This document shows positions 38,472-47,868 of a stretch of DNA of 64,000 bases, piece by piece (the first letter of the stretch is position 1; each line of letters begins with the position of its first letter). The stretch lies in NCBI RefSeq assembly GCF_014652875.1, contig NZ_BMZQ01000002.1, positions 248,001-312,000 of the forward strand. The letters run 5' to 3'. The translations under genes were made by a program, and so were the position numbers. Under the pieces are notes generated by a model, which searched no databases, was not told where the DNA came from, and saw only the letters and a list, made by a program, of their open reading frames with translations. The DNA comes from Tianweitania populi (lineage in GTDB: Bacteria > Pseudomonadota > Alphaproteobacteria > Rhizobiales > Rhizobiaceae).

Positions 38472-39521
38472 ATGCACATGACATCGAACCGGTTCGCAGC
38501 CGTCGCTCTGCTCGCGGCCAGCGTTATCTTCCCGCCCGCAGCATTTGCTGCAGACCCCTCTCCGGAAATGAAGGCCGTGCTCGACAAGCTGACCGATCTC
38601 GAGGTCAAGCCGATCCACACGCTGTCCGTGCCGGATGCTCGCAGCCAGGCGACGCCTGCCGATGCCGCCAAGGCTGTGCAGCTGGAAAAGAGAATTCCGT
38701 CTGCGCCGGAATCCAAGGTCCTCACCAAGGACATCAGCATTCCTACGAAAAACGGTGCCCTTGCCGCCCGCGTTTACACGCCGGATGGTGCTGCCAAGGA
38801 GGCCTTGCCGGTGGTCGTGTATTTCCACGGCGGCGGCTGGGTCATTGCCGACATCAACGTGTACGATTCAACGCCGCGCGCGCTTGCTGCCGGTGCCAAT
38901 GCGATCGTGATTTCGGTTGAGTATCGCCACGCCCCTGAAAACAAGTTCCCGGCAGCGCATGAAGATGCGTGGAATGCCTATACCTGGGCGGTCGAGAATG
39001 TTCATACGCTGAACGGCGACGCCAAGCGCATCGCGGTTGCAGGCGAAAGTGCTGGCGGCAACCTCGCTGCCAATGTCGCGCTGATGGCCAAGAAGAACGA
39101 GACCACTCAGCCGGTTCACCAGCTGCTGGTGTACCCGGTGGCCGGCAACGACATGAACACTGAATCCTACAAGGAAAACGCGGAAGCCAAGCCGCTCGGC
39201 AAGGCCGATATGGAATGGTTCGTGAAGAACGTGTTCCCGTCCATGGACGAAACCAAGGACGAGCGTTTGAACCTGGTTGGCCGCACCGACCTCAAGGGTC
39301 TGCCATCGGCAACCGTGATCACCGCCGAGATCGATCCGCTGCGTTCCGAAGGCCAGGCCTATGCCGCCAAGCTGAAGGAAGCCGGCGTCGAGGTGAATGC
39401 CAAGACTTATCCCGGCGTGACGCATGAGTTCTTCGGCATGGCCAAGGTCGTACCAGCCGCCAAGGAGGCCACGGATCTCGCCGTTGCCGACCTGAAGGCT
39501 GCTTTTGCCAAGACCAAGTAA
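38472..39521 (+). CDS. Exported alpha/beta hydrolase (HSL family esterase/lipase)
   Basis: Serine esterase of the hormone-sensitive-lipase type. 349 residues with a signal peptide (cleavage after AFAA, about residue 27). The oxyanion motif HGGGW lies near 119, the nucleophile elbow GESAGG near 193. The acid and base are in ITAEIDPLRSEG and GVTHEFFG. GAGG lies seven bases before the ATG. Periplasmic location is indicated by the signal; the substrate is unknown. It is followed after 25 bases by the DUF4142 gene, probably as a two-gene unit under the GGAAC element. Confidence 0.92.
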   Translation: MHMTSNRFAAVALLAASVIFPPAAFAADPSPEMKAVLDKLTDLEVKPIHTLSVPDARSQATPADAAKAVQLEKRIPSAPESKVLTKDISIPTKNGALAARVYTPDGAAKEALPVVVYFHGGGWVIADINVYDSTPRALAAGANAIVISVEYRHAPENKFPAAHEDAWNAYTWAVENVHTLNGDAKRIAVAGESAGGNLAANVALMAKKNETTQPVHQLLVYPVAGNDMNTESYKENAEAKPLGKADMEWFVKNVFPSMDETKDERLNLVGRTDLKGLPSATVITAEIDPLRSEGQAYAAKLKEAGVEVNAKTYPGVTHEFFGMAKVVPAAKEATDLAVADLKAAFAKTK

Positions 39522-39546
39522 CTGTCCCTTTAAAGGAACCAGACCC

Positions 39547-40065
39547 ATGAAACAGGTCCTCAGTGCCGTTGCCATCAGCCTTCTTCTCGCCTCCTCCGCG
39601 ATGGCGCAGGAAAAGGCCGGCGATCCAGACATGGCCGCTGCGGCGATGAAGGTGGAAACGCCGAAATTCGTCGAGATGGTCGCCAGCTCGAACATGTTGG
39701 AGATCGAGTCCAGCAAGCTTGCCGAAAAGAAGTCCAAGGATGAAGACATCCAGGCCTTCGCCAAGCATATGATCAAGGATCACACCAAGGCTGGCGAAGA
39801 TCTGAAGGCGACGGGACAGACCCCGCCAATAAAGTATGCTCCCAAGCATGCCGCGATGATGAAGCTGTTGGAAAATGCCGAAGGCAAGGACTTCGACGCG
39901 CTTTACATCGACATGCAGACGCAGGCGCATATGGAAGCCGTGATGCTGTTCCGCACCTATGCAGGTTCGGGTGACGACGAGAAAGTCGTCGCCTTTGCAA
40001 AGAACACTTTGCCCGCACTCGAGATGCACATGGATCACATCAAGAAGATCGTCGCCAAGAAGTAA
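39547..40065 (+). CDS. DUF4142 exported protein
   Basis: 172 residues: a signal peptide (MKQVLSAVAISLLLASSAMA-Q) followed by an all-helical ferritin-like DUF4142 domain. Family features are FVEMVASSNMLEIESSKLA, IQAFAKHMIKDHTKAGEDLK and the C-terminal LPALEMHMDHIKKI. Members are periplasmic, often near stress-response genes, and of unknown function. AAAGGAACC precedes the ATG at 39547. A terminator follows at 40084. Confidence 0.9.
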   Translation: MKQVLSAVAISLLLASSAMAQEKAGDPDMAAAAMKVETPKFVEMVASSNMLEIESSKLAEKKSKDEDIQAFAKHMIKDHTKAGEDLKATGQTPPIKYAPKHAAMMKLLENAEGKDFDALYIDMQTQAHMEAVMLFRTYAGSGDDEKVVAFAKNTLPALEMHMDHIKKIVAKK

Positions 40066-40083
40066 GTGTGTGACATCAATGAA

Positions 40084-40117
40084 CGGCCCGCACATCAAGC
40101 GCGGGCCGCTTTGTTCT
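40084..40117 (+). terminator. Terminator after the DUF4142 gene
   Basis: Eight-bp GC stem CGGCCCGC / GCGGGCCG followed by the T-rich stretch CTTTGTTCTT, 18 bases past the stop. Confidence 0.75.
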
Positions 40118-40214
40118 TGAGACTGAAAAGCTTGAATATCGACTGTTTCGGCAACGACTTCTTAGGTCGTTCGCGCCGACACTGCTCCCCGCAAGATCTG
40201 CCGGGACTTGATTT

Positions 40215-41258
40215 ATGCCGCATCCTTCAACGCAAATGCGTATGCCGCGCCTCGATGGCGGAACCGTCGATGAGCATCTGCGTCTGGCGGCCCTGCAAAG
40301 CTACGACATTCTCGACACGCCGCGCGAAGAAGCCTTCGACCGGGTGGTGCGGCTGGTGCGCAACATCTTCGATGTGCCGATCGCCTTTATCTCGATGATT
40401 GCGGCCGACCGGCAATGGACGAAAGCCTGCATCGGCCTGCCCGACAACAATCTTGACCGCAAGGTCACCTTCTGCCGCCTGGTGCTGCAAAGCGGCGAGC
40501 CAGTCGTCATTCCCGACCTCAGCGAAGATGACAGGCTGAAGGACAATCCGTTTGTGACCGGTCCGGCGCATATGCGCTTTTATGCCGGCATCCCCTTGCG
40601 CACGCTCGAAGGCTTTACCCTCGGCACGCTTTGCGCGATCGACAACAAGCCGCGATCGTTCACGCCAACCAACCTTGAGGTGCTGACCGACCTGGCCGCC
40701 ATCGTCATGCACGAGCTCGAACTGCGCCGTACGGCCGAAGTCGATGTGCTCACCAAGGTCCTGACGCGGCGCGCCTTCAACGGCCAGGCCAAGCAGGTGC
40801 TGGCGCTGATGGACCGACAGGAGCGCCCCTCCTCCATCATCATGCTCGATATCGACCGCTTCAAATCGATCAACGACACTTATGGCCACGCTACGGGCGA
40901 CCGCGTTCTGTCCGAAGTTGCCGGTATCTGCCAGGCGCAGATCCGCTCCACCGACCTGATCGGCCGGCTCGGCGGCGAGGAGTTCGCCATTCTCCTGCCC
41001 GGCAGCGAAGGGAAAGACGCTCTGCGGATCGCCGAGAAGATCCGCAAAGCGATTGCCGCGGCCAGGATCGACGTTGGCAATGTGGCGCTGTCGGCGACGT
41101 CCAGCTTCGGCATTGCGACGGTGGAGACAGAGGCGAAAGACCTGAATGCCCTGCTCGGCCTTGCCGACGCCGGCCTATACATGGCCAAATCGCGTGGGCG
41201 CAATTGCGTGGTCAATCTTCAGGCCGAGATGAAGATGGACCAGCAGAAACAAGCCTGA
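40215..41258 (+). CDS. GAF-GGDEF diguanylate cyclase
   Basis: 347 residues without transmembrane segments. A GAF sensor domain (about 25-170, with FDVPIAFISMIAADRQWTKA and AGIPLRTLEGFTLGTLCAID) is followed by a GGDEF domain (about 178-340). The active site is GGEEF, preceded by an intact I-site RSTD five residues upstream, so product inhibition by cyclic di-GMP is expected. MLDIDRFKSINDTYGHATGD carries the metal-binding Asp. It is monocistronic, with ATG at 40215. The GAF ligand is unknown. Confidence 0.92.
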   Translation: MPHPSTQMRMPRLDGGTVDEHLRLAALQSYDILDTPREEAFDRVVRLVRNIFDVPIAFISMIAADRQWTKACIGLPDNNLDRKVTFCRLVLQSGEPVVIPDLSEDDRLKDNPFVTGPAHMRFYAGIPLRTLEGFTLGTLCAIDNKPRSFTPTNLEVLTDLAAIVMHELELRRTAEVDVLTKVLTRRAFNGQAKQVLALMDRQERPSSIIMLDIDRFKSINDTYGHATGDRVLSEVAGICQAQIRSTDLIGRLGGEEFAILLPGSEGKDALRIAEKIRKAIAAARIDVGNVALSATSSFGIATVETEAKDLNALLGLADAGLYMAKSRGRNCVVNLQAEMKMDQQKQA

Positions 41259-41381
41259 TCGTTCTTCTTTATCGAACGATCAATCGCCGAACCGTGACCT
41301 AGCGTGAACGATATGGCGTAGGCATCTTAGGATCATGCAGCGGCAACACAGCCGCGCCCTGCAATGGGAGCAAGATCCTCG

Positions 41382-42245
41382 ATGCCGACCCCTGTCACCT
41401 CATCTTCCACGCCGCTGCGGATCGGTAAGGTCACGCTGACGGTGAACGATCTCGCAGGAGTCAGCGCCTTTTACCAGAAGGTGTTGGGTCTTGCCCTCTT
41501 GGACCAAACGGATGGCGTCGCGCGGCTCGGCGCGGGAAGCAGCGTCTTTCTGGAGTTGGTGGGTGATGCCTCAGTGCCCCGCTCGTCGGCGCGCGAGGCC
41601 GGTCTGTTTCACACCGCCTTCCTGCTTCCGACCCGCGCCGATCTCGGCAGCTGGATTGACTATCTCGCCCACAACCGCTTCTCCATCCAGGGCGCATCCG
41701 ACCATGCGGTGAGCGAAGCGCTTTATCTGGCGGACCCGGAAGGCAACGGTATCGAAGTCTATGCCGACCGCTCCTCTTCGGAATGGCCTTATCCCGATGG
41801 CAAGCTCGGCATGACCACGGAGCGGCTCGATATCGACAACCTGCGAGCTGCGGCGGCCGGTCTGGAGTGGCAGGGCGCGCCGGCGGGATCGACCGTCGGG
41901 CACGTGCATCTGCAGGTCGGCGCCACGCCTGACGCCGATGCCTTCTATGCCGATGCGCTCGGCCTCGATATCACCGCGCGCTATCCCGGCGCGAGCTTCT
42001 ACAGCTCGGGCGGCTATCATCACCACTTCGCCGGCAACATCTGGAACAGTCGCAATGCTGGCAAACGTGTGCCCGGTTCTACCGGCCTGCGCGAGGTCGA
42101 ACTGCTGGCCGCCGATCCCGCGAGTTACAATAAGACGACTGCCCGGCTCGAAGCAGCGGGCATCGCAGTCCACCAGCAAACGAGCGGCATCCGGTTTGAA
42201 GATCCGTGGGGCACAGCGCTCAGCCTCAGCCAGAAGGAAATCTGA
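41382..42245 (+). CDS. VOC family protein, two glyoxalase-like domains (CatE-like)
   Basis: 287 residues made of two vicinal-oxygen-chelate units (about 12-135 and 165-285). Unit 1 begins LRIGKVTLTVNDLAGVSAFY; unit 2 has VGHVHLQVGATPDADAFYAD and GGYHHHFAGNIWNS. The His and Glu positions (HVHLQV, HHHFAG, GIEVYADR) resemble catechol-2,3-dioxygenase CatE-type proteins. The exact reaction is not known. The start at 41382 is preferred to ATG 41364 because only it has GGGAG upstream, though at long spacing. The hydroquinone reductase gene follows after two bases, so aromatic or quinone metabolism may be shared. Confidence 0.85.
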   Translation: MPTPVTSSSTPLRIGKVTLTVNDLAGVSAFYQKVLGLALLDQTDGVARLGAGSSVFLELVGDASVPRSSAREAGLFHTAFLLPTRADLGSWIDYLAHNRFSIQGASDHAVSEALYLADPEGNGIEVYADRSSSEWPYPDGKLGMTTERLDIDNLRAAAAGLEWQGAPAGSTVGHVHLQVGATPDADAFYADALGLDITARYPGASFYSSGGYHHHFAGNIWNSRNAGKRVPGSTGLREVELLAADPASYNKTTARLEAAGIAVHQQTSGIRFEDPWGTALSLSQKEI

Positions 42246-42247
42246 TC

Positions 42248-43225
42248 ATGCTGGTTGACGGCAAGTGGACGGAAGACTGGCAGCCGGTTCAGGCCAAGGA
42301 TGCCAAAGGCGGCTTCGTTCGCCAAACATCGAGCTTCCGGAACTGGGTGACGCCCGATGGCAGTGCTGGCCCCACCGGCGAGGGCGGCTTCAAGGCGGAA
42401 GCCGGTCGATACCATCTTTACGTCGCGCTGATCTGCCCTTGGGCCTCGCGCACGCTGATCGGCCGCAGACTGAAGGGGCTGGAAGATGCGATCTCATTGT
42501 CGATCGTGGAGCCGGTGCTGACCGACCAAGGCTGGCGCTTCGGCTCCTACCCCGGCGCGACCGGGGATGCGGTCAACGGCGTCACCTATATGCACGAGCT
42601 TTATACGCGCGCCGACCCGCATTTCACTGGCCGCGCCACCGTGCCAGTGTTGTGGGACAAGCAGCGCGGCACGATCGTCAACAACGAGTCCGCCGACATC
42701 CTGCGCATGCTCAACAGCGGCTTCGGCGATCTGGCGGATGACACCTTCGAGTTCTACCCCGAAGCCTTGCGTGAGGAGATCGATGCGCTGAACGCTGAGA
42801 TCTATCCCAAGCTGAACAATGGCGTTTACCGCGCCGGCTTTGCCACTACGCAGATTGCTTATGAAGAAGCGTTCAACGATGTGTTCGCCACGTTGGAAAC
42901 GCTGGAAGGCCGGCTAAGTGACGGCCGGCGCTTCCTGGTTGGCGAGTCGTTGACGGAAGCCGATATCCGCTTGTTCGTGACGCTGGTGCGGTTCGATGCC
43001 GCTTATTACGGGCTGTTCAAGACGAACCTCAAGCGCATTGCCGATTATCCGCATCTGTCTGGTTATCTCGATACCATGCTGGCGGTGCCTGGTATTCGCG
43101 AGACAGTCGATATCGACCACATCAAGCAAGGCTATTACTCGATCAAGGCGCTGAACCCCAACGGTATCGTGCCGGTCGGTCCGGATCTGCCGGGATTGGA
43201 CCCGGTAGAGCCTGCGGCCGCTTGA
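42248..43225 (+). CDS. Glutathionyl-hydroquinone reductase (Xi-class GST, YqjG/ECM4 type)
   Basis: Reduces glutathionyl-hydroquinones with glutathione. 325 residues, the expected length. The catalytic Cys63 sits in ICPWASRTLIGRRLKGL, the Xi-class hallmark. Other landmarks are VPVLWDKQRGTIVNNESADI, the C-terminal helical domain with ADIRLFVTLVRFDAAYYGLF, and NPNGIVPVGPDLP. ATG 42248 has AAGGAA upstream and lies two bases after the VOC gene stop. A terminator follows directly. Confidence 0.94.
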   Translation: MLVDGKWTEDWQPVQAKDAKGGFVRQTSSFRNWVTPDGSAGPTGEGGFKAEAGRYHLYVALICPWASRTLIGRRLKGLEDAISLSIVEPVLTDQGWRFGSYPGATGDAVNGVTYMHELYTRADPHFTGRATVPVLWDKQRGTIVNNESADILRMLNSGFGDLADDTFEFYPEALREEIDALNAEIYPKLNNGVYRAGFATTQIAYEEAFNDVFATLETLEGRLSDGRRFLVGESLTEADIRLFVTLVRFDAAYYGLFKTNLKRIADYPHLSGYLDTMLAVPGIRETVDIDHIKQGYYSIKALNPNGIVPVGPDLPGLDPVEPAAA

Positions 43226-43240
43226 TCCGCCTTCAAGCGA

Positions 43241-43275
43241 AAGGCCCGCGCCGTTTCCGACGCGGGCCTTCTTTG
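43241..43275 (+). terminator. Terminator between GS-HQR gene and autotransporter gene
   Basis: Ten-bp stem AAGGCCCGCG / CGCGGGCCTT followed by CTTTG. It lies between two convergent genes and could act for both. Confidence 0.82.
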
Positions 43276-43294
43276 TTGGTGCGGCTCAGTTTGA

Positions 43295-46200
43295 TCAGAA
43301 GTTCAGGCTGAACCTGGCCTTGACGGCGTTCTGGGTGAAGTCTGAGCCGAACTGGCCGCCATATTGCACACCGAGCGTGGCGTTCTCGCTCAGGGTAAAG
43401 TCGATGCCGGCTTCAACCAGAGCGGTGTCTTCCGCAACCGCTGCACCCGTGACATCGAACGCGCCGCCGCCGGCGAAGGCGACATTGGTGTTGGGCGTCG
43501 TGTCGCCATAAGCGTGCTGCCAGCCGATCAGACCGCGAGCCTGTGCGACCACGCTGCCGAGGTTGAACGGAGCCGAAGCCCGCAGACCCAGCGTGGTGAG
43601 GGTCGTGTCCATCGAGTCTTCGCCGATCGACAGAGCTGCCGCCCCGCCGCGTTCGCTAAAGCCGTCCGTGTTCAGGCTGACATAAGCCAGGTTGGCGAAG
43701 GGCTCGAGTGCGGCTTGACCGACATCGAAGCGATGCGACAACTCACCAAAGGCCTGGAACGTGCCGGCATCATAGTCGCCCAACAAACGGTCGCTGAAGC
43801 CGGGGAAGGCAACCGAGCGGCTGGTTTCCACGGAATGCCAGCTGTAGCCGATGCCGGCGCGGAACGCTGTCTTGTTCCACTCGCCGCCGCCGTAAACGCC
43901 GAGATGGTAGTTGTCGCTGTCGGCCGACGAGCGGAGAGCATCCACGTCGAAGGAGGAGCGGCTGTAACCTGCCATCAGGCCCAGGCGCCAGGTTTCAGAC
44001 AGCGCACCGTCGAAGCCCGTGAAGAAGCCGCCGGTGGACTGTTCGAGTTCAGCCGTTTCGCTGGTGGATTTGGTTGTGCTCCACACGCCGAAGGCCTGGG
44101 TCCAGAGAGCCGGACCGGAAGGGCCAGCCGGCTGAACGGCTTGGGCGCCGTCCGCATAGGACATCACCGGCATGTCAACCGACCCCGAACCGGCAAAGGC
44201 AGCGCGGATGCGCTCATTGGCAGCGTTGCGCAAAGAGGCGCTGTCATTGATCAGCGCCGTCTTGGTGGAGGCGTGGATTTCGCCCGAAAGCGCATCGAAT
44301 GAGGCACGCGCGGCCTCTTCGCCATCCTGCCATACAACCGCATCATAGAGCGAATTGCCACCGCCGAGGGCTTCCACTGCAGTCGCCACCGCACGCTGGT
44401 TGGCGGTTTCGCCGACAGTCGGGAAGGCCACGTCGTTGCGTTGGACGTCGAGCGTCACGCGCGTCGGATCATAGGTGAAGCCGAGATCGATGAAGGGCAG
44501 GTTCTGGTTGAGCGCTGCAAAGCGCCCGTCCACACCGCCAGCCGCCGTCAGGATCTCATAGGACCGACCCGGCGTATAGGTGCCCGGCGCCTTTTGAACG
44601 AAGACGTTGGCGCCGTCGATCTGCGCGAAACCGGCAGCACTAATGCGGTCGCCGGCGCCCGACGGGTCGATCTCGACCTGGTAAGTCGAACCGGCCTGCA
44701 GGGTGAGATCGCCGGCAACGTTGAGCGTGCCGATGGAATTACCCGGTGCAACGCTTGCACCGGAAGCGACGGTGAGGCCGCCGAGTGTGCCGCTGCCGGC
44801 AAGGATCGCACCGTTGGACACTGCGACATTGCCCACAATGGACGCGCCGGCATGATTGGCATCGCCGACGATCAGGCCACCGTTCTGCACCGTGGTGCCG
44901 CCGGTGTAAGTGTTGACGCCGTTGAGCGTGAGCCAGCCTGCGCCTGATTTGGTCAAGCTGCCCGCGCCTTCGATGCTGCCATCGAAGCGGGTGTTGATCG
45001 ACTGGTCGAGGGTGAGCGAGGCATCGCCCAAGGCAACCGTGCCGCCCAGACCCGACAGGGAGGCTGCCGTCAGATCGAAACCGTTGAGGTCGAGCTGACC
45101 GCCATTCACCGCATAGTGCATGCTGTTGGACAGAGCGCCTGCAACGCCGGCACGCAGGGTGCCGGCTTCCACCATCGTGCCGCCGAGATAGCTGTTGGCG
45201 GCATCGAGCGTCAAAGCACCGGCGCCGCGCTTGGTCAAACTGCCCTGCCCACTGATCGCTTGGCTCACCGACACGTCATTGCCGGCATCCGCCACGTCGA
45301 TAATGCCCGCAGCGTCGAGCTTCACTTCGCGGTCGAGGCTGGTCATCGTCGTGCCGACAACGCGCAGACGGCCATTGGCCAGCCGCAGATCGGCATCGAC
45401 GCCGCCGAGTGCGGCATCTTCATCCACGATCAGCGTGCCGCCATCGGTGACCAGCGTTTCGCCGATGAAGGAATGGTCGTCGATGCAGTAGTCCTGGACG
45501 GCTTTCGCGAACCGCGCATCCGTGCCGGCGCAATCCAGCAGCGTCTTCTTCTCGTCCAGCGTCAGGTCGGCGAGGATCGGATTGCCGTTCTCATCCGCGA
45601 TCTGGCCGAGATAAACGTCCTTGCGCATGTTGTTGCGCGTAAGGAAGAACTCCTTGTTGCGGCCGTTGAAGTCGTAGGCGCCTTCACCCCAAACCAGGCG
45701 GGTCTTGGCGGTGGCGCCGGATGCGTAGGTTTCAAGCTTGGGGCCGATCCAACGGAATTCATGCGCGACGGCGTCGTGGTCGGATACGGGGCGAGCTGGA
45801 TCCTCGTTGGAGTAAAGATCACGCAAGGTGCCGAGTGACTTGTCGGCCGGATCATCGGCAATGACGTACCACTTGCCGAATGGACGGGACGCCAGGAAGT
45901 GGTCGATCTTCACGCGATCCCAGCTTGGCCACACGCTTCCGGTTGCATCCTCACCTTTCGATGGCCAGGTCACGCTGCCATCATTCAAAGTATGGGGAGA
46001 AAAGGGTTCGCGTTGAGAGTCGGTCTGAAGAAGCATGAACTGCTTTTTAAGGACGTTCATTGTCACCGGCGTATTGCTAGCGACCGGGTAGGTTTCTGGC
46101 GTGAGGCCGATGTCCTTGCCCTGATTGTAAGCGCCTTCCAGCGCGTTCGCCCATTGCTTCCAGGTCAGCTTATTGATGTCCTGACCCGGGAAAGCATCTT

Positions 46201-46897
46201 GAATGACCCGAAGCGATTGCGCCCGGTTGCCGGCATCCAGATATTGGTTGGACAGTGATGCGTACAATGAATTGCCGTCGGCGCTCTTCATCGTGCGCAG
46301 TTGTTGCACGACCCGATGCAGCCCGCGTTCTGAAACATCACCGGCATTGAAGTCGCCTGATACGATCAACGGCGCAGCGACCTGCTTGGCCCAGGCATTG
46401 AGCGCCTTCGCTTCAAGCAGCCTTTTAGCCGAACCATCAGAGTAATCCATGTGGATGCTGCCGATGGTGGTTTGCGGACGCGAGCCGGAGGCGTCGATCG
46501 TGGCAAACGGCACATTCTTGCCCTGGCTATCAAAGCCCTGAGCCTGGAAGTGGTCGATCGTACCCGGAAGGCGCGTCAGGATGGCCGCGCTGCCGTCGCG
46601 TCGACCCAGATATGTCCCACGGCCGGCATCCCTGAGGATTTCCGGAATGCGCGTCATGTAGGAATCCTTGGCCTCTTGGAACATGATGGCGTCGTAGTTG
46701 CCGTCGACGATGAAGCCGGCCATCGGCGTCGGATCTTTTTCGAACTTGTTCCAGATGTTCAGGTTGAGCAGGCGGATCGTGTCGCCCTTTGGTGCTTCCT
46801 GCGCCAGCGCCCCCGCGCCGAACGCCAGCAGCATCGCGCCGGCTGTTGTTGCCTTGAGTGCCACAAGCGTGCGGCCCCTCGCCCTTGTGTTAGCCAT
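43295..46897 (-). CDS. Autotransporter with an N-terminal endonuclease/exonuclease/phosphatase (EEP) passenger
   Basis: 1200 residues from ATG 46897. A signal peptide (about 1-32, ending GALAQ) is followed by an EEP-fold domain (about 40-385). The full active-site set is visible: Asn47 (LNLNIWN), Glu75 (FQEAKD), His149, Asp182 and Asn184 (GDFNA), and Asp373-His374 (VSDHDAV). Next come autotransporter stalk repeats (about 560-830, with NTYTGGTTVQNGGLIVGDA and GTLGGLTVASGASVAPGNS) and a beta-barrel translocator (about 930-1200, ending in Phe). So a metal-dependent phosphodiesterase, DNase or sphingomyelinase-like enzyme is placed at the cell surface. The substrate is unknown. The upstream start at 46957 lacks a ribosome site; GGGGG lies before 46897. 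Confidence 0.9.
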   Translation of the reverse strand: MANTRARGRTLVALKATTAGAMLLAFGAGALAQEAPKGDTIRLLNLNIWNKFEKDPTPMAGFIVDGNYDAIMFQEAKDSYMTRIPEILRDAGRGTYLGRRDGSAAILTRLPGTIDHFQAQGFDSQGKNVPFATIDASGSRPQTTIGSIHMDYSDGSAKRLLEAKALNAWAKQVAAPLIVSGDFNAGDVSERGLHRVVQQLRTMKSADGNSLYASLSNQYLDAGNRAQSLRVIQDAFPGQDINKLTWKQWANALEGAYNQGKDIGLTPETYPVASNTPVTMNVLKKQFMLLQTDSQREPFSPHTLNDGSVTWPSKGEDATGSVWPSWDRVKIDHFLASRPFGKWYVIADDPADKSLGTLRDLYSNEDPARPVSDHDAVAHEFRWIGPKLETYASGATAKTRLVWGEGAYDFNGRNKEFFLTRNNMRKDVYLGQIADENGNPILADLTLDEKKTLLDCAGTDARFAKAVQDYCIDDHSFIGETLVTDGGTLIVDEDAALGGVDADLRLANGRLRVVGTTMTSLDREVKLDAAGIIDVADAGNDVSVSQAISGQGSLTKRGAGALTLDAANSYLGGTMVEAGTLRAGVAGALSNSMHYAVNGGQLDLNGFDLTAASLSGLGGTVALGDASLTLDQSINTRFDGSIEGAGSLTKSGAGWLTLNGVNTYTGGTTVQNGGLIVGDANHAGASIVGNVAVSNGAILAGSGTLGGLTVASGASVAPGNSIGTLNVAGDLTLQAGSTYQVEIDPSGAGDRISAAGFAQIDGANVFVQKAPGTYTPGRSYEILTAAGGVDGRFAALNQNLPFIDLGFTYDPTRVTLDVQRNDVAFPTVGETANQRAVATAVEALGGGNSLYDAVVWQDGEEAARASFDALSGEIHASTKTALINDSASLRNAANERIRAAFAGSGSVDMPVMSYADGAQAVQPAGPSGPALWTQAFGVWSTTKSTSETAELEQSTGGFFTGFDGALSETWRLGLMAGYSRSSFDVDALRSSADSDNYHLGVYGGGEWNKTAFRAGIGYSWHSVETSRSVAFPGFSDRLLGDYDAGTFQAFGELSHRFDVGQAALEPFANLAYVSLNTDGFSERGGAAALSIGEDSMDTTLTTLGLRASAPFNLGSVVAQARGLIGWQHAYGDTTPNTNVAFAGGGAFDVTGAAVAEDTALVEAGIDFTLSENATLGVQYGGQFGSDFTQNAVKARFSLNF

Positions 46898-47082
46898 GAT
46901 GTAGAACCCCCGAGTGATGTAGAAAAACCAGCAGCGAAAATGTTGGTTTTCGGACATTAGCGGGGATGTATGTCAGTTACGCTACAGCCGATCTCACCTA
47001 TGGTAAATCACGCCTTGATGTTCGCAGGGATGCTCGCGCCGGCTGAGTGGACGTCGGAGCCATGACGATCCCAGAGGCAGGC

Positions 47083-47868
47083 ATGGAAGCGGCGAACAAG
47101 AAAGAGCGGCGGCAGGCTTCGTTGCTGCGGGAGATCGAGCAGCGGCATTACGTTTCGATCGAGGAGATCACCCGGCGCTATTCTGTCACGACGCAGACGG
47201 CGCGGCGCGATATCATGGCGCTGGAAGAACAGGGCAAGGTGCGGCGCCTGCATGGCGGCGTGGCGCTTGCTGTTCCGCTCGATCCGGGAACCTACCGGCA
47301 GCGGCGCACCGACCAAGCGGCGGAGAAGACACGGATTGCCGCGGTTGTCGCGAGCCTCATCCCCGATGGCGCGACGCTGTTCCTCGATACCGGCACGACC
47401 TGCGAGGCAATTGCCCGGGCATTGGTGACCAAGGAACGATTGCGGATCGTCACCTATAGTCTGCGCGTCGCTTCCCTGATCAGCGAGCATTCCGACTTCA
47501 CACTGGCCATTCCCGGGGGCTTCGTGCGGCCGATTGATGGCGGCGTTTCGGGCGAAGACACGGCCGATTTCATCAGGCGCTTCAAGTTCGATTATGCCGT
47601 GCTTTCGGTGAGTGGCATTGATGATGACGGCGATCTTTGTGACGATGACCACACGGAAGTCGCGATCGTGTCGGCCGCGATGAAGCAGGCGACGCAGTGC
47701 GTTCTGGCAGTCGACAACAGCAAGTTCGGCAAGGGCGCTTTGGTGCGGCTTGGCTCCATGCGTGACGTCGATTTACTCGTCACGGATCGCGCGCCGCCGC
47801 CTTCCCTGGCTGAGCGCTTGCCCGACTTTGGCGTCGCTCTGCACCTGCCGCAGAAGGCGAGTGCCTGA
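47083..47868 (+). CDS. DeoR/GlpR family transcriptional regulator
   Basis: 261 residues. An N-terminal winged helix (about 6-60, EEITRRYSVTTQTARRDIMAL then GKVRRLHGGVAL) precedes a sugar-phosphate sensing domain. The domain shows FLDTGTTCEAIARAL, SGEDTADFIRRF and AVDNSKFGKGALVRLGSM, as in GlpR. The effector is probably a phosphorylated sugar or glycerol phosphate, but no sugar operon is adjacent. Three starts are possible: 47047 (GTG), 47062 and 47083 (ATG); AGAGG suits 47083. It is divergent from the autotransporter gene, which it could regulate. Confidence 0.92.
   Translation: MEAANKKERRQASLLREIEQRHYVSIEEITRRYSVTTQTARRDIMALEEQGKVRRLHGGVALAVPLDPGTYRQRRTDQAAEKTRIAAVVASLIPDGATLFLDTGTTCEAIARALVTKERLRIVTYSLRVASLISEHSDFTLAIPGGFVRPIDGGVSGEDTADFIRRFKFDYAVLSVSGIDDDGDLCDDDHTEVAIVSAAMKQATQCVLAVDNSKFGKGALVRLGSMRDVDLLVTDRAPPPSLAERLPDFGVALHLPQKASA

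What the first reader, a model, noticed from the sequence alone, without database searches (positions are those of the whole stretch)
43295..46897. Autotransporter carrying a complete EEP phosphodiesterase passenger
Seen: one 1200-residue frame with a signal peptide, an EEP-fold domain having all expected active-site positions (Asn47, Glu75, His149, Asp182, Asn184, Asp373, His374), stalk repeats, and a barrel ending in Phe. Known: EEP enzymes include DNase I-like nucleases, sphingomyelinases and inositol phosphatases; classical autotransporter passengers are mostly proteases, esterases or adhesins. Inference: the cell displays or releases a metal-dependent phosphodiesterase, for example to digest extracellular DNA or host phospholipid. 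The adjacent divergent DeoR regulator may control it.
Basis: partly seen in the sequence, partly recalled or inferred. Interest (0 to 1): 0.62.

Follow-up and report, generated by a model that had tools for sequence, protein, structure and literature searches.

The report
Surface phosphodiesterase with its own repressor
A bacterium carries a gene for a phosphate-ester-cutting enzyme fused to its own outer-membrane exporter, next to a gene for a dedicated switch protein and its DNA target site; the same pair recurs in dozens of related bacteria, and between some close relatives the enzyme part differs strongly while the exporter stayed the same.

Summary
Window 43295-46897(-) encodes 1200 aa: signal-like N-terminus, EEP domain, PATR stalk, autotransporter barrel ending in Phe. 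An AlphaFold2 model of residues 35-500 (pLDDT 94) is an EEP fold. All seven active-site residues are present, and kept in 82 of 85 rows; the other three are broken frames. The host shares a genus with Tianweitania aestuarii.

New: (1) The neighbouring DeoR protein is a dedicated partner. A GlpR-like regulator lies beside the EEP gene in 66 of 79 unique genomes, in three gene orders; four more genomes hold a clade member elsewhere. Those 70 carry a palindrome, ATGT-N10-ACAT, before the EEP gene; the other nine have neither. (2) In three pairs of relatives the EEP head differs (16-26% identity in its N-terminal half) while linker, stalk and barrel are 67-91% identical. (3) Seven paper searches listed no EEP autotransporter.

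Best reading: a GlpR-type repressor, released by an organophosphate, controls a surface phosphodiesterase acting on extracellular phosphodiesters. Substrate unknown; nuclease and phospholipase/sphingomyelinase activity are not excluded. New variant of a known kind.

The parts
43295..46897 (-). EEP autotransporter gene, 1200 aa plus stop
46802..46897 (-). signal-peptide-like N-terminus (residues 1-32)
   Evidence: read from the translation; no predictor run
45728..46789 (-). EEP catalytic domain (about residues 37-390) with N47, E75, H149, D182, N184, D373, H374; the part that differs between close relatives
   Evidence: Pfam; residues; fold; head exchange
45398..45727 (-). strongly conserved linker (residues 391-500, two conserved Cys) after the EEP domain
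44108..45397 (-). stalk (residues 501-930) with PATR repeats (best 554-582)
   Evidence: Pfam PF12951 and TIGR02601; residues 615-825 match the solved chain 8e7f_A
43298..44107 (-). autotransporter beta-barrel (residues 931-1200), C-terminal Phe
   Evidence: PF03797 931-1180; TIGR01414 718-1200
46940..46957 (-). predicted operator 1, ATGT-N10-ACAT
46970..46987 (-). predicted operator 2, degenerate (CTGT-N10-ACAT), 30 bp from operator 1
   Evidence: a 29-31 bp pair occurs in 18 of 85 upstream regions
47047..47868 (+). divergent GlpR-like DeoR-family regulator, 273 aa (in-frame ATG also at 47062)
   Evidence: clade; recognition helix

Best explanation
It is a two-gene module: a type Va autotransporter with an EEP phosphodiesterase head, and a dedicated GlpR-like repressor that binds two palindromes, 30 bp apart, 43-90 bp before the autotransporter start codon. 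Shown by sequence and model: architecture, EEP fold, intact active site, regulator linkage, operator co-occurrence. Inferred: the passenger is placed on, or shed from, the cell surface; it hydrolyses an extracellular phosphodiester with divalent metals; a phosphorylated organic product (glycerol-3-phosphate-like or a sugar phosphate) releases the repressor, so the enzyme is made when its products are around. The most likely substrates are small organic phosphodiesters or headgroup/sugar phosphodiesters, so it would work like a surface-displayed counterpart of the glp-regulon enzyme GlpQ, with a different fold.
For: EEP fold: pLDDT 94, Tdp2 Z 21.9. All seven catalytic residues are present in 82 of 85 rows; the three exceptions are broken frames. 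DeoR-family gene in the same locus in 66 of 79 unique genomes: 33 divergent, 31 downstream, 2 upstream same strand. Palindrome in 70 of 79: all 66 linked plus 4 whose genomes carry a clade member elsewhere. The nine genomes without palindrome have as best regulator only 29-45% matches, none of which joins the clade. The same pattern falls in 77 of 7281 control windows and in 0 of 85 shuffled upstream regions. In the own genome ATGTNNNNAAANNNACAT occurs once, here. Regulator: GlpR model 231 bits, DeoR model 78; the clade groups next to GlpR-like regulators, of which the own one sits beside what reads as glpD and ABC ATPases. The nearest outgroup regulators (4 genomes) have a TTCG/CGAA palindrome of the same frame beside them; in the two of these loci that I scanned, PhnS2- or PhnU2-type organophosphorus ABC genes lie near.
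Against: No activity, secretion or binding was measured. The ligand is inferred from regulator kinship only; the GlpR equivalog cut-off is not met (231 v 331 bits), though the own glycerol-type GlpR, at 264 bits, does not meet it either. EEP structures with nucleic acid substrates score as high as or higher than others. Among the 25 largest neighbour clusters printed, none but the pair itself is shared by more than 18 of 85 rows, so context names no substrate; the clusters were not annotated. No Pho box at this promoter (3 sites in the window, 3.8 expected). No exact ATGT-N10-ACAT lies in the E. coli glpT-glpA gap; best 13 of 18 to the recalled consensus. No sigma-70-type promoter was found at 43100-47200. 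One of 12 order-survey genomes with a strong regulator match (G152) has a clade regulator but no EEP match.
Confidence: 0.5

Rival explanations
1. It is a surface nuclease that digests extracellular DNA or RNA for nutrients or to loosen biofilm matrix; the regulator senses a nucleotide-derived sugar phosphate.
For: Top structural matches are Tdp2 DNA phosphodiesterases, Z 21.9; exonuclease III sequences are among the weak profile matches.
Against: Z differences among EEP classes are small; the regulator is GlpR-like rather than DeoR-like (231 v 78 bits). The family has a long conserved stretch between the DxN and IDH motifs, of unknown meaning.
Confidence: 0.25
2. It is a phospholipase C or sphingomyelinase acting on membranes of hosts or competitors.
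For: Human neutral sphingomyelinase is the top Foldseek hit (E 4.6e-10); sphingomyelinases at Z about 19-20; a GlpR-like regulator fits lipid headgroup catabolism (inference).
Against: No sphingomyelinase-specific element was tested; the sequence match to the human enzyme is weak (E 0.015). Carrier genera named are, as I recall, mostly soil, water and plant bacteria; the titles do not give sources.
Confidence: 0.15
3. The exchanged head makes it an antagonism or evasion factor: the enzyme is diversified because phages, competitors or hosts select against a common form.
For: EEP head differs in three pairs of relatives with linker, stalk and barrel kept.
Against: No third gene, such as an immunity gene, is shared widely beside the pair (25 largest clusters printed); active-site residues are kept; the exchange also fits substrate switching.
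Confidence: 0.1

Closest known systems
Type Va autotransporters of the EprS serine-protease kind
   Same: Stalk and barrel: NCBIfam EprS model 438 bits, best stretch 645-1192; PATR and PF03797; match to 8e7f_A, an extracellular serine protease
   Different: The head is an EEP domain, not a protease; the EprS cut-off (1700 bits) is not met
EEP superfamily (PF03372): Tdp2, exonuclease III, sphingomyelinases, mannosyl-6-phosphatase Bt3783, GlcNAc-6-PC phosphodiesterase
   Same: Fold and the seven catalytic residues
   Different: Fused to stalk and barrel; long conserved stretch inside the domain and a conserved C-terminal linker; substrate unknown. PMC10704324 (abstract and passages seen) shows that an EEP subfamily can be sugar-phosphodiester specific; that enzyme was not compared by sequence here
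GlpR, repressor of the glp regulon
   Same: Best family model, neighbouring clade; outer arms of the predicted operator resemble the GlpR site as I recall it. PMC4659176 (passages seen): glycerol-3-phosphate releases GlpR
   Different: Equivalog cut-off not met; recognition helix QTARRD instead of QTIRRD; inner operator bases changed; the A-rich operator form has one place in the own genome
E. coli GlpQ
   Same: Exported phosphodiesterase; its control by GlpR is recalled; gene order glpT-glpQ seen
   Different: Recalled to be periplasmic and of the GDPD fold; not compared by sequence here

Membership tests
Type Va autotransporter | C-terminal barrel domain | tested here: met
   PF03797 E 3.4e-69 over profile positions 1-255 of 255
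Type Va autotransporter | Sec signal peptide | tested here: inconclusive
   hydrophobic stretch ending ALA-Q read; no predictor run
Type Va autotransporter | stalk repeats before the barrel | tested here: met
   PATR, TIGR02601
Type Va autotransporter | passenger reaches the cell surface | not testable with these tools
   needs surface labelling
EEP superfamily | EEP fold | tested here: met
   Z 21.9, rmsd 2.6 to 4puq_A, 232 aligned
EEP superfamily | catalytic Asn, Glu, His, Asp-x-Asn, Asp-His | tested here: met
   invariant in A1 and A2
EEP superfamily | Pfam PF03372 over its cut-off | tested here: inconclusive
   23.9 bits and 27.9 bits against 24.5
EEP superfamily | metal-dependent phosphoester hydrolysis | not testable with these tools
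   needs an assay
Sphingomyelinase or nuclease subfamilies | clear best match to one subfamily | tested here: inconclusive
   several EEP classes within about 3 Z units in the 50 rows shown
DeoR family regulator | HTH_DeoR plus DeoRC | tested here: met
   PF08220 and PF00455, both over cut-off
GlpR (equivalog) | NCBIfam PRK10906 cut-off 331 bits | tested here: not met
   231 bits; the own genome's best match, 264 bits, also misses it
GlpR (equivalog) | release by glycerol-3-phosphate | not testable with these tools
   needs binding assay

The most novel reading that the evidence does not exclude
A self-contained surface-enzyme module in which one export chassis (linker, stalk, barrel) and one dedicated GlpR-derived switch are kept while the catalytic EEP head is exchanged as a cassette between lineages, re-aiming the cell's surface phosphodiesterase at different extracellular phosphodiesters.
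Probability: 0.4. Interest if true: 0.66.

Novelty: new variant of a known kind. Interest (0 to 1): 0.55.

Why it matters
In the review of type V passengers that I saw in passages (PMC6555100), proteases, lipases/esterases and CDI enzymes are named, and the words phosphodiesterase and phosphatase do not occur. A conserved EEP head with its own repressor would add an enzyme class to classical autotransporters. The operator gives a direct handle on the inducer and so on the substrate. The head exchange gives a natural system for asking what an autotransporter chassis will accept.

Tried and rejected
Pseudoenzyme: rejected, all active-site residues kept in the 82 rows that are not broken. Phosphate-starvation control by a Pho box: 3 sites in the window, 3.8 expected by chance, none at this promoter; the best upstream scores led me to the palindrome instead. 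A conserved metabolic operon around the pair: of the 25 largest clusters printed, the next after the pair covers 18 of 85 rows at scattered positions; clusters were not annotated. Neighbours of the unlinked regulators (two of them annotated) gave no shared clue. Spread outside the order: a phylum sample hit 2 of 398 genomes, own included, both already known; the named scan added, among others, Halomonas, Shewanella and two Pseudomonas records, these four without operator and clade regulator. The Foldseek and VIA lists do not separate EEP subclasses. The linker residues 391-500 gave no match in 11 other fetched loci of the own and sister genome; it was not folded alone. The Fisher values ignore relatedness and the operator table used rows, not genomes, so they are not used. 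One search used a poor motif and was replaced.
Full report
What is there. Window 43295-46897(-) is one open frame of 1200 residues. Pfam gives an EEP domain at 46-374 (E 4.2e-5), PATR repeats (E 1.4e-14) and an autotransporter barrel at 931-1180 (E 3.4e-69); NCBIfam gives the barrel at 718-1200 and a stalk and barrel like the serine-protease autotransporter EprS. The protein ends in Phe and begins with a signal-like stretch (read). The own genome has five matches to the EEP model; this is the weakest of the five.

The head is an EEP enzyme by fold. With 73 aligned sequences, AlphaFold2 gave pLDDT 94.0 and pTM 0.93 for residues 35-500. VIA-align: Tdp2 Z 21.9 (rmsd 2.6, 232 aligned), 3mpr Z 21.0, 4ruw Z 20.6 (rmsd 3.7, 269 aligned), mannosyl-6-phosphatase Bt3783 Z 20.4, human neutral sphingomyelinase Z 20.4, B. 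cereus sphingomyelinase Z 19.7. Foldseek puts the human sphingomyelinase first (E 4.6e-10). The substrate class cannot be read from this. A profile search of PDB sequences gave only weak matches (best E 0.0045).

Relatives. In the genus, 2 of 3 genomes searched, own included, match. In the order, 9 of 397 genomes match, own included: seven with frames of 1078-1225 aa and two with frames of 327-332 aa and weak matches. In the phylum sample, 2 of 398. A profile scan of named genomes gave 77 loci (the scan is seeded by two short peptide patterns, so more distant relatives may be missed). The frame contains a barrel like the window's in 70 of 79; L108 has a barrel by NCBIfam. Of the other eight, L094 and L098 run off the contig, L099 is broken, and L044, L045, L046, L106 and L112 show no barrel in the frame; I did not follow their downstream frames. 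All seven active-site residues are kept in 82 of 85 rows; L099, L109 and L110 deviate and are broken frames. In the plasmid collection 15 records match; in the 5 where a gene is listed it is called an autotransporter-domain protein (4) or an EEP family protein (1).

The regulator. The divergent gene at 47047-47868(+) has HTH_DeoR and DeoRC domains; its best NCBIfam model is DeoR/GlpR PRK10906, 231 bits against a cut-off of 331, with AgaR at 124 and DeoR at 78. A homologue (over 40% identity) lies in the same locus in 66 of 79 unique genomes: divergent in 33, downstream on the same strand in 31, upstream on the same strand in 2. In a tree of 91 regulators the linked ones form one group with an unlinked Labrys gene, next to the own GlpR-like gene; the tool warns that long branches may be misplaced and that the bootstrap had not settled. 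In the order survey, 12 of 397 genomes hold a match at E up to 1e-70: all seven EEP-autotransporter genomes, and five without an EEP match.

The operator. Before the EEP gene lies a palindrome ATGT-N10-ACAT with an A-rich centre. The form [AT]TGT-N10-ACA[AT] within -400 to +60 of the frame start was found in 75 of 85 loci and 0 of 85 shuffles. L109, whose frame start is misplaced by a frameshift, has it further upstream. By unique genome: 70 of 79. The pattern falls in 77 of 7281 control windows of the same loci. Of 13 genomes with no regulator in the locus, 4 have the palindrome (L051, L055, L080, L103); each of these holds a regulator elsewhere at 53-63% identity that falls inside the clade. 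The one of L080 (L157) is reported with one TAG inside its match, but an open frame of 263 aa covers 258 aligned residues. The other 9 have neither: their best regulators (29-45% identity) fall outside the clade (a FastTree tree, no support values read). Across eight whole genomes AATGT-N10-ACATT has 15 places, one of them before the EEP gene in each of the eight (frame positions). The narrower pattern ATGTNNNNAAANNNACAT occurs once in the own genome, at window 46940-46957; in 20 genomes searched, 16 have it, some at other places too. A second, degenerate copy (46970-46987) lies 30 bp away; pairs spaced 29-31 bp occur in 18 of 85 upstream regions, 37 of which have two or more sites.

A specificity change. 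All 78 clade members examined (duplicates included) have Ala at the x of QTxRRD in the recognition helix. The four outgroup regulators of G148, G175, G197 and G316 have Ile; of 33 others, 18 have Ile, 2 Val and 13 were not matched by the motif. In the two of them whose neighbours I scanned (L186, L187) PhnS2- or PhnU2-type ABC transport genes lie near, below their curated cut-offs. This fits a clade that left GlpR-type sites for a private operator.

Head exchange. Window against T. aestuarii L091: residues 37-160 16% identical, 161-232 43%, 233-390 51%, then 391-500 89%, 501-900 82%, barrel 85%. In sliding windows the step lies at about residues 370-395. Genes around the module in the two genomes are mostly 77-96% identical, with one (DUF4142) at 55%. 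Brucella L041 against L079: 26, 50, 57, then 88, 88, 91%. L104 against L103: 18, 36, 49, then 67, 76, 78%; here the rise is less sharp, with dips to 40-60% at about frame residues 450-600. By the N-terminal half, 75 unique rows fall into 62 of type A (window) and 13 of type B at the 1e-18 threshold (L094, L099, L109 and L110 left out, six duplicates removed); at a laxer threshold they merge, at a stricter one L111 and L114 split off. A type B head (L091) also folds as EEP: pLDDT 90.2, 3mpr Z 19.8. Recombination is the simplest reading but was not tested formally, and whether the types differ in substrate is unknown.

How it most likely works. Shown: parts, fold, intact active site, partner regulator, operator co-occurrence, head difference. 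Inferred: export, catalysis, repression, inducer. GlpR is released by glycerol-3-phosphate (PMC4659176, passages; PMC2753651, passages). The own genome also has a GlpR-like gene beside what reads as glpD and ABC ATPases, so the clade is an extra, specialised switch. A GlpR-type switch on an exported phosphodiesterase has a precedent in E. coli glpTQ (gene order; control by GlpR recalled). EEP enzymes can be specific for sugar phosphodiesters (PMC10704324, abstract and passages). I therefore favour small organic phosphodiesters over DNA or membranes, at modest confidence.

Literature. Searches for EEP autotransporters or for an autotransporter under GlpR or DeoR: 0 papers; one found, 30 listed; 168, 20 listed; 13, all listed; 34, 15 listed; 4, all listed; 25, 12 listed; no listing showed one by title or start of abstract. 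Unlisted papers were not seen, and only open-licence papers are held. The one paper holding both domain names (PMC5551000) has them on different proteins in the passages seen.

Noticed in passing
L044 7869-10193, L045 7878-10184: Paracoccaceae relatives have the EEP head and PATR but no barrel in the frame; L044 has a weak VPLPA-CTERM match (18.8 bits, below cut-off), and the regulator lies upstream on the same strand: possibly another way of surface attachment.
   Followed up: partly
L186, L187, L188, L189: Outgroup GlpR-like regulators with a TTCG/CGAA palindrome beside them; PhnS2/PhnU2-type ABC genes near in L186 and L187: probably organophosphorus uptake loci.
   Followed up: partly
L087: A record titled Bacillus subtilis SK6B4 carries this module with a regulator nearly identical to Pseudochrobactrum L090: the record looks contaminated.
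   Followed up: no
G152:C92:29177-29935: A genome of the same genus handle as G123 and G200 (Labrys) keeps a clade regulator but has no EEP match: an orphan regulator or an incomplete assembly.
   Followed up: no
G000:C2:216136-218190 and G000:C3:183503-185254: Two further autotransporter-like frames (1071 and 1911 aa) in the own genome outside the window.
   Followed up: no
window 39505-42245: Near the module: DUF4142 protein, GAF-GGDEF diguanylate cyclase, glyoxalase-family protein; homologues in the same region of T. aestuarii.
   Followed up: no
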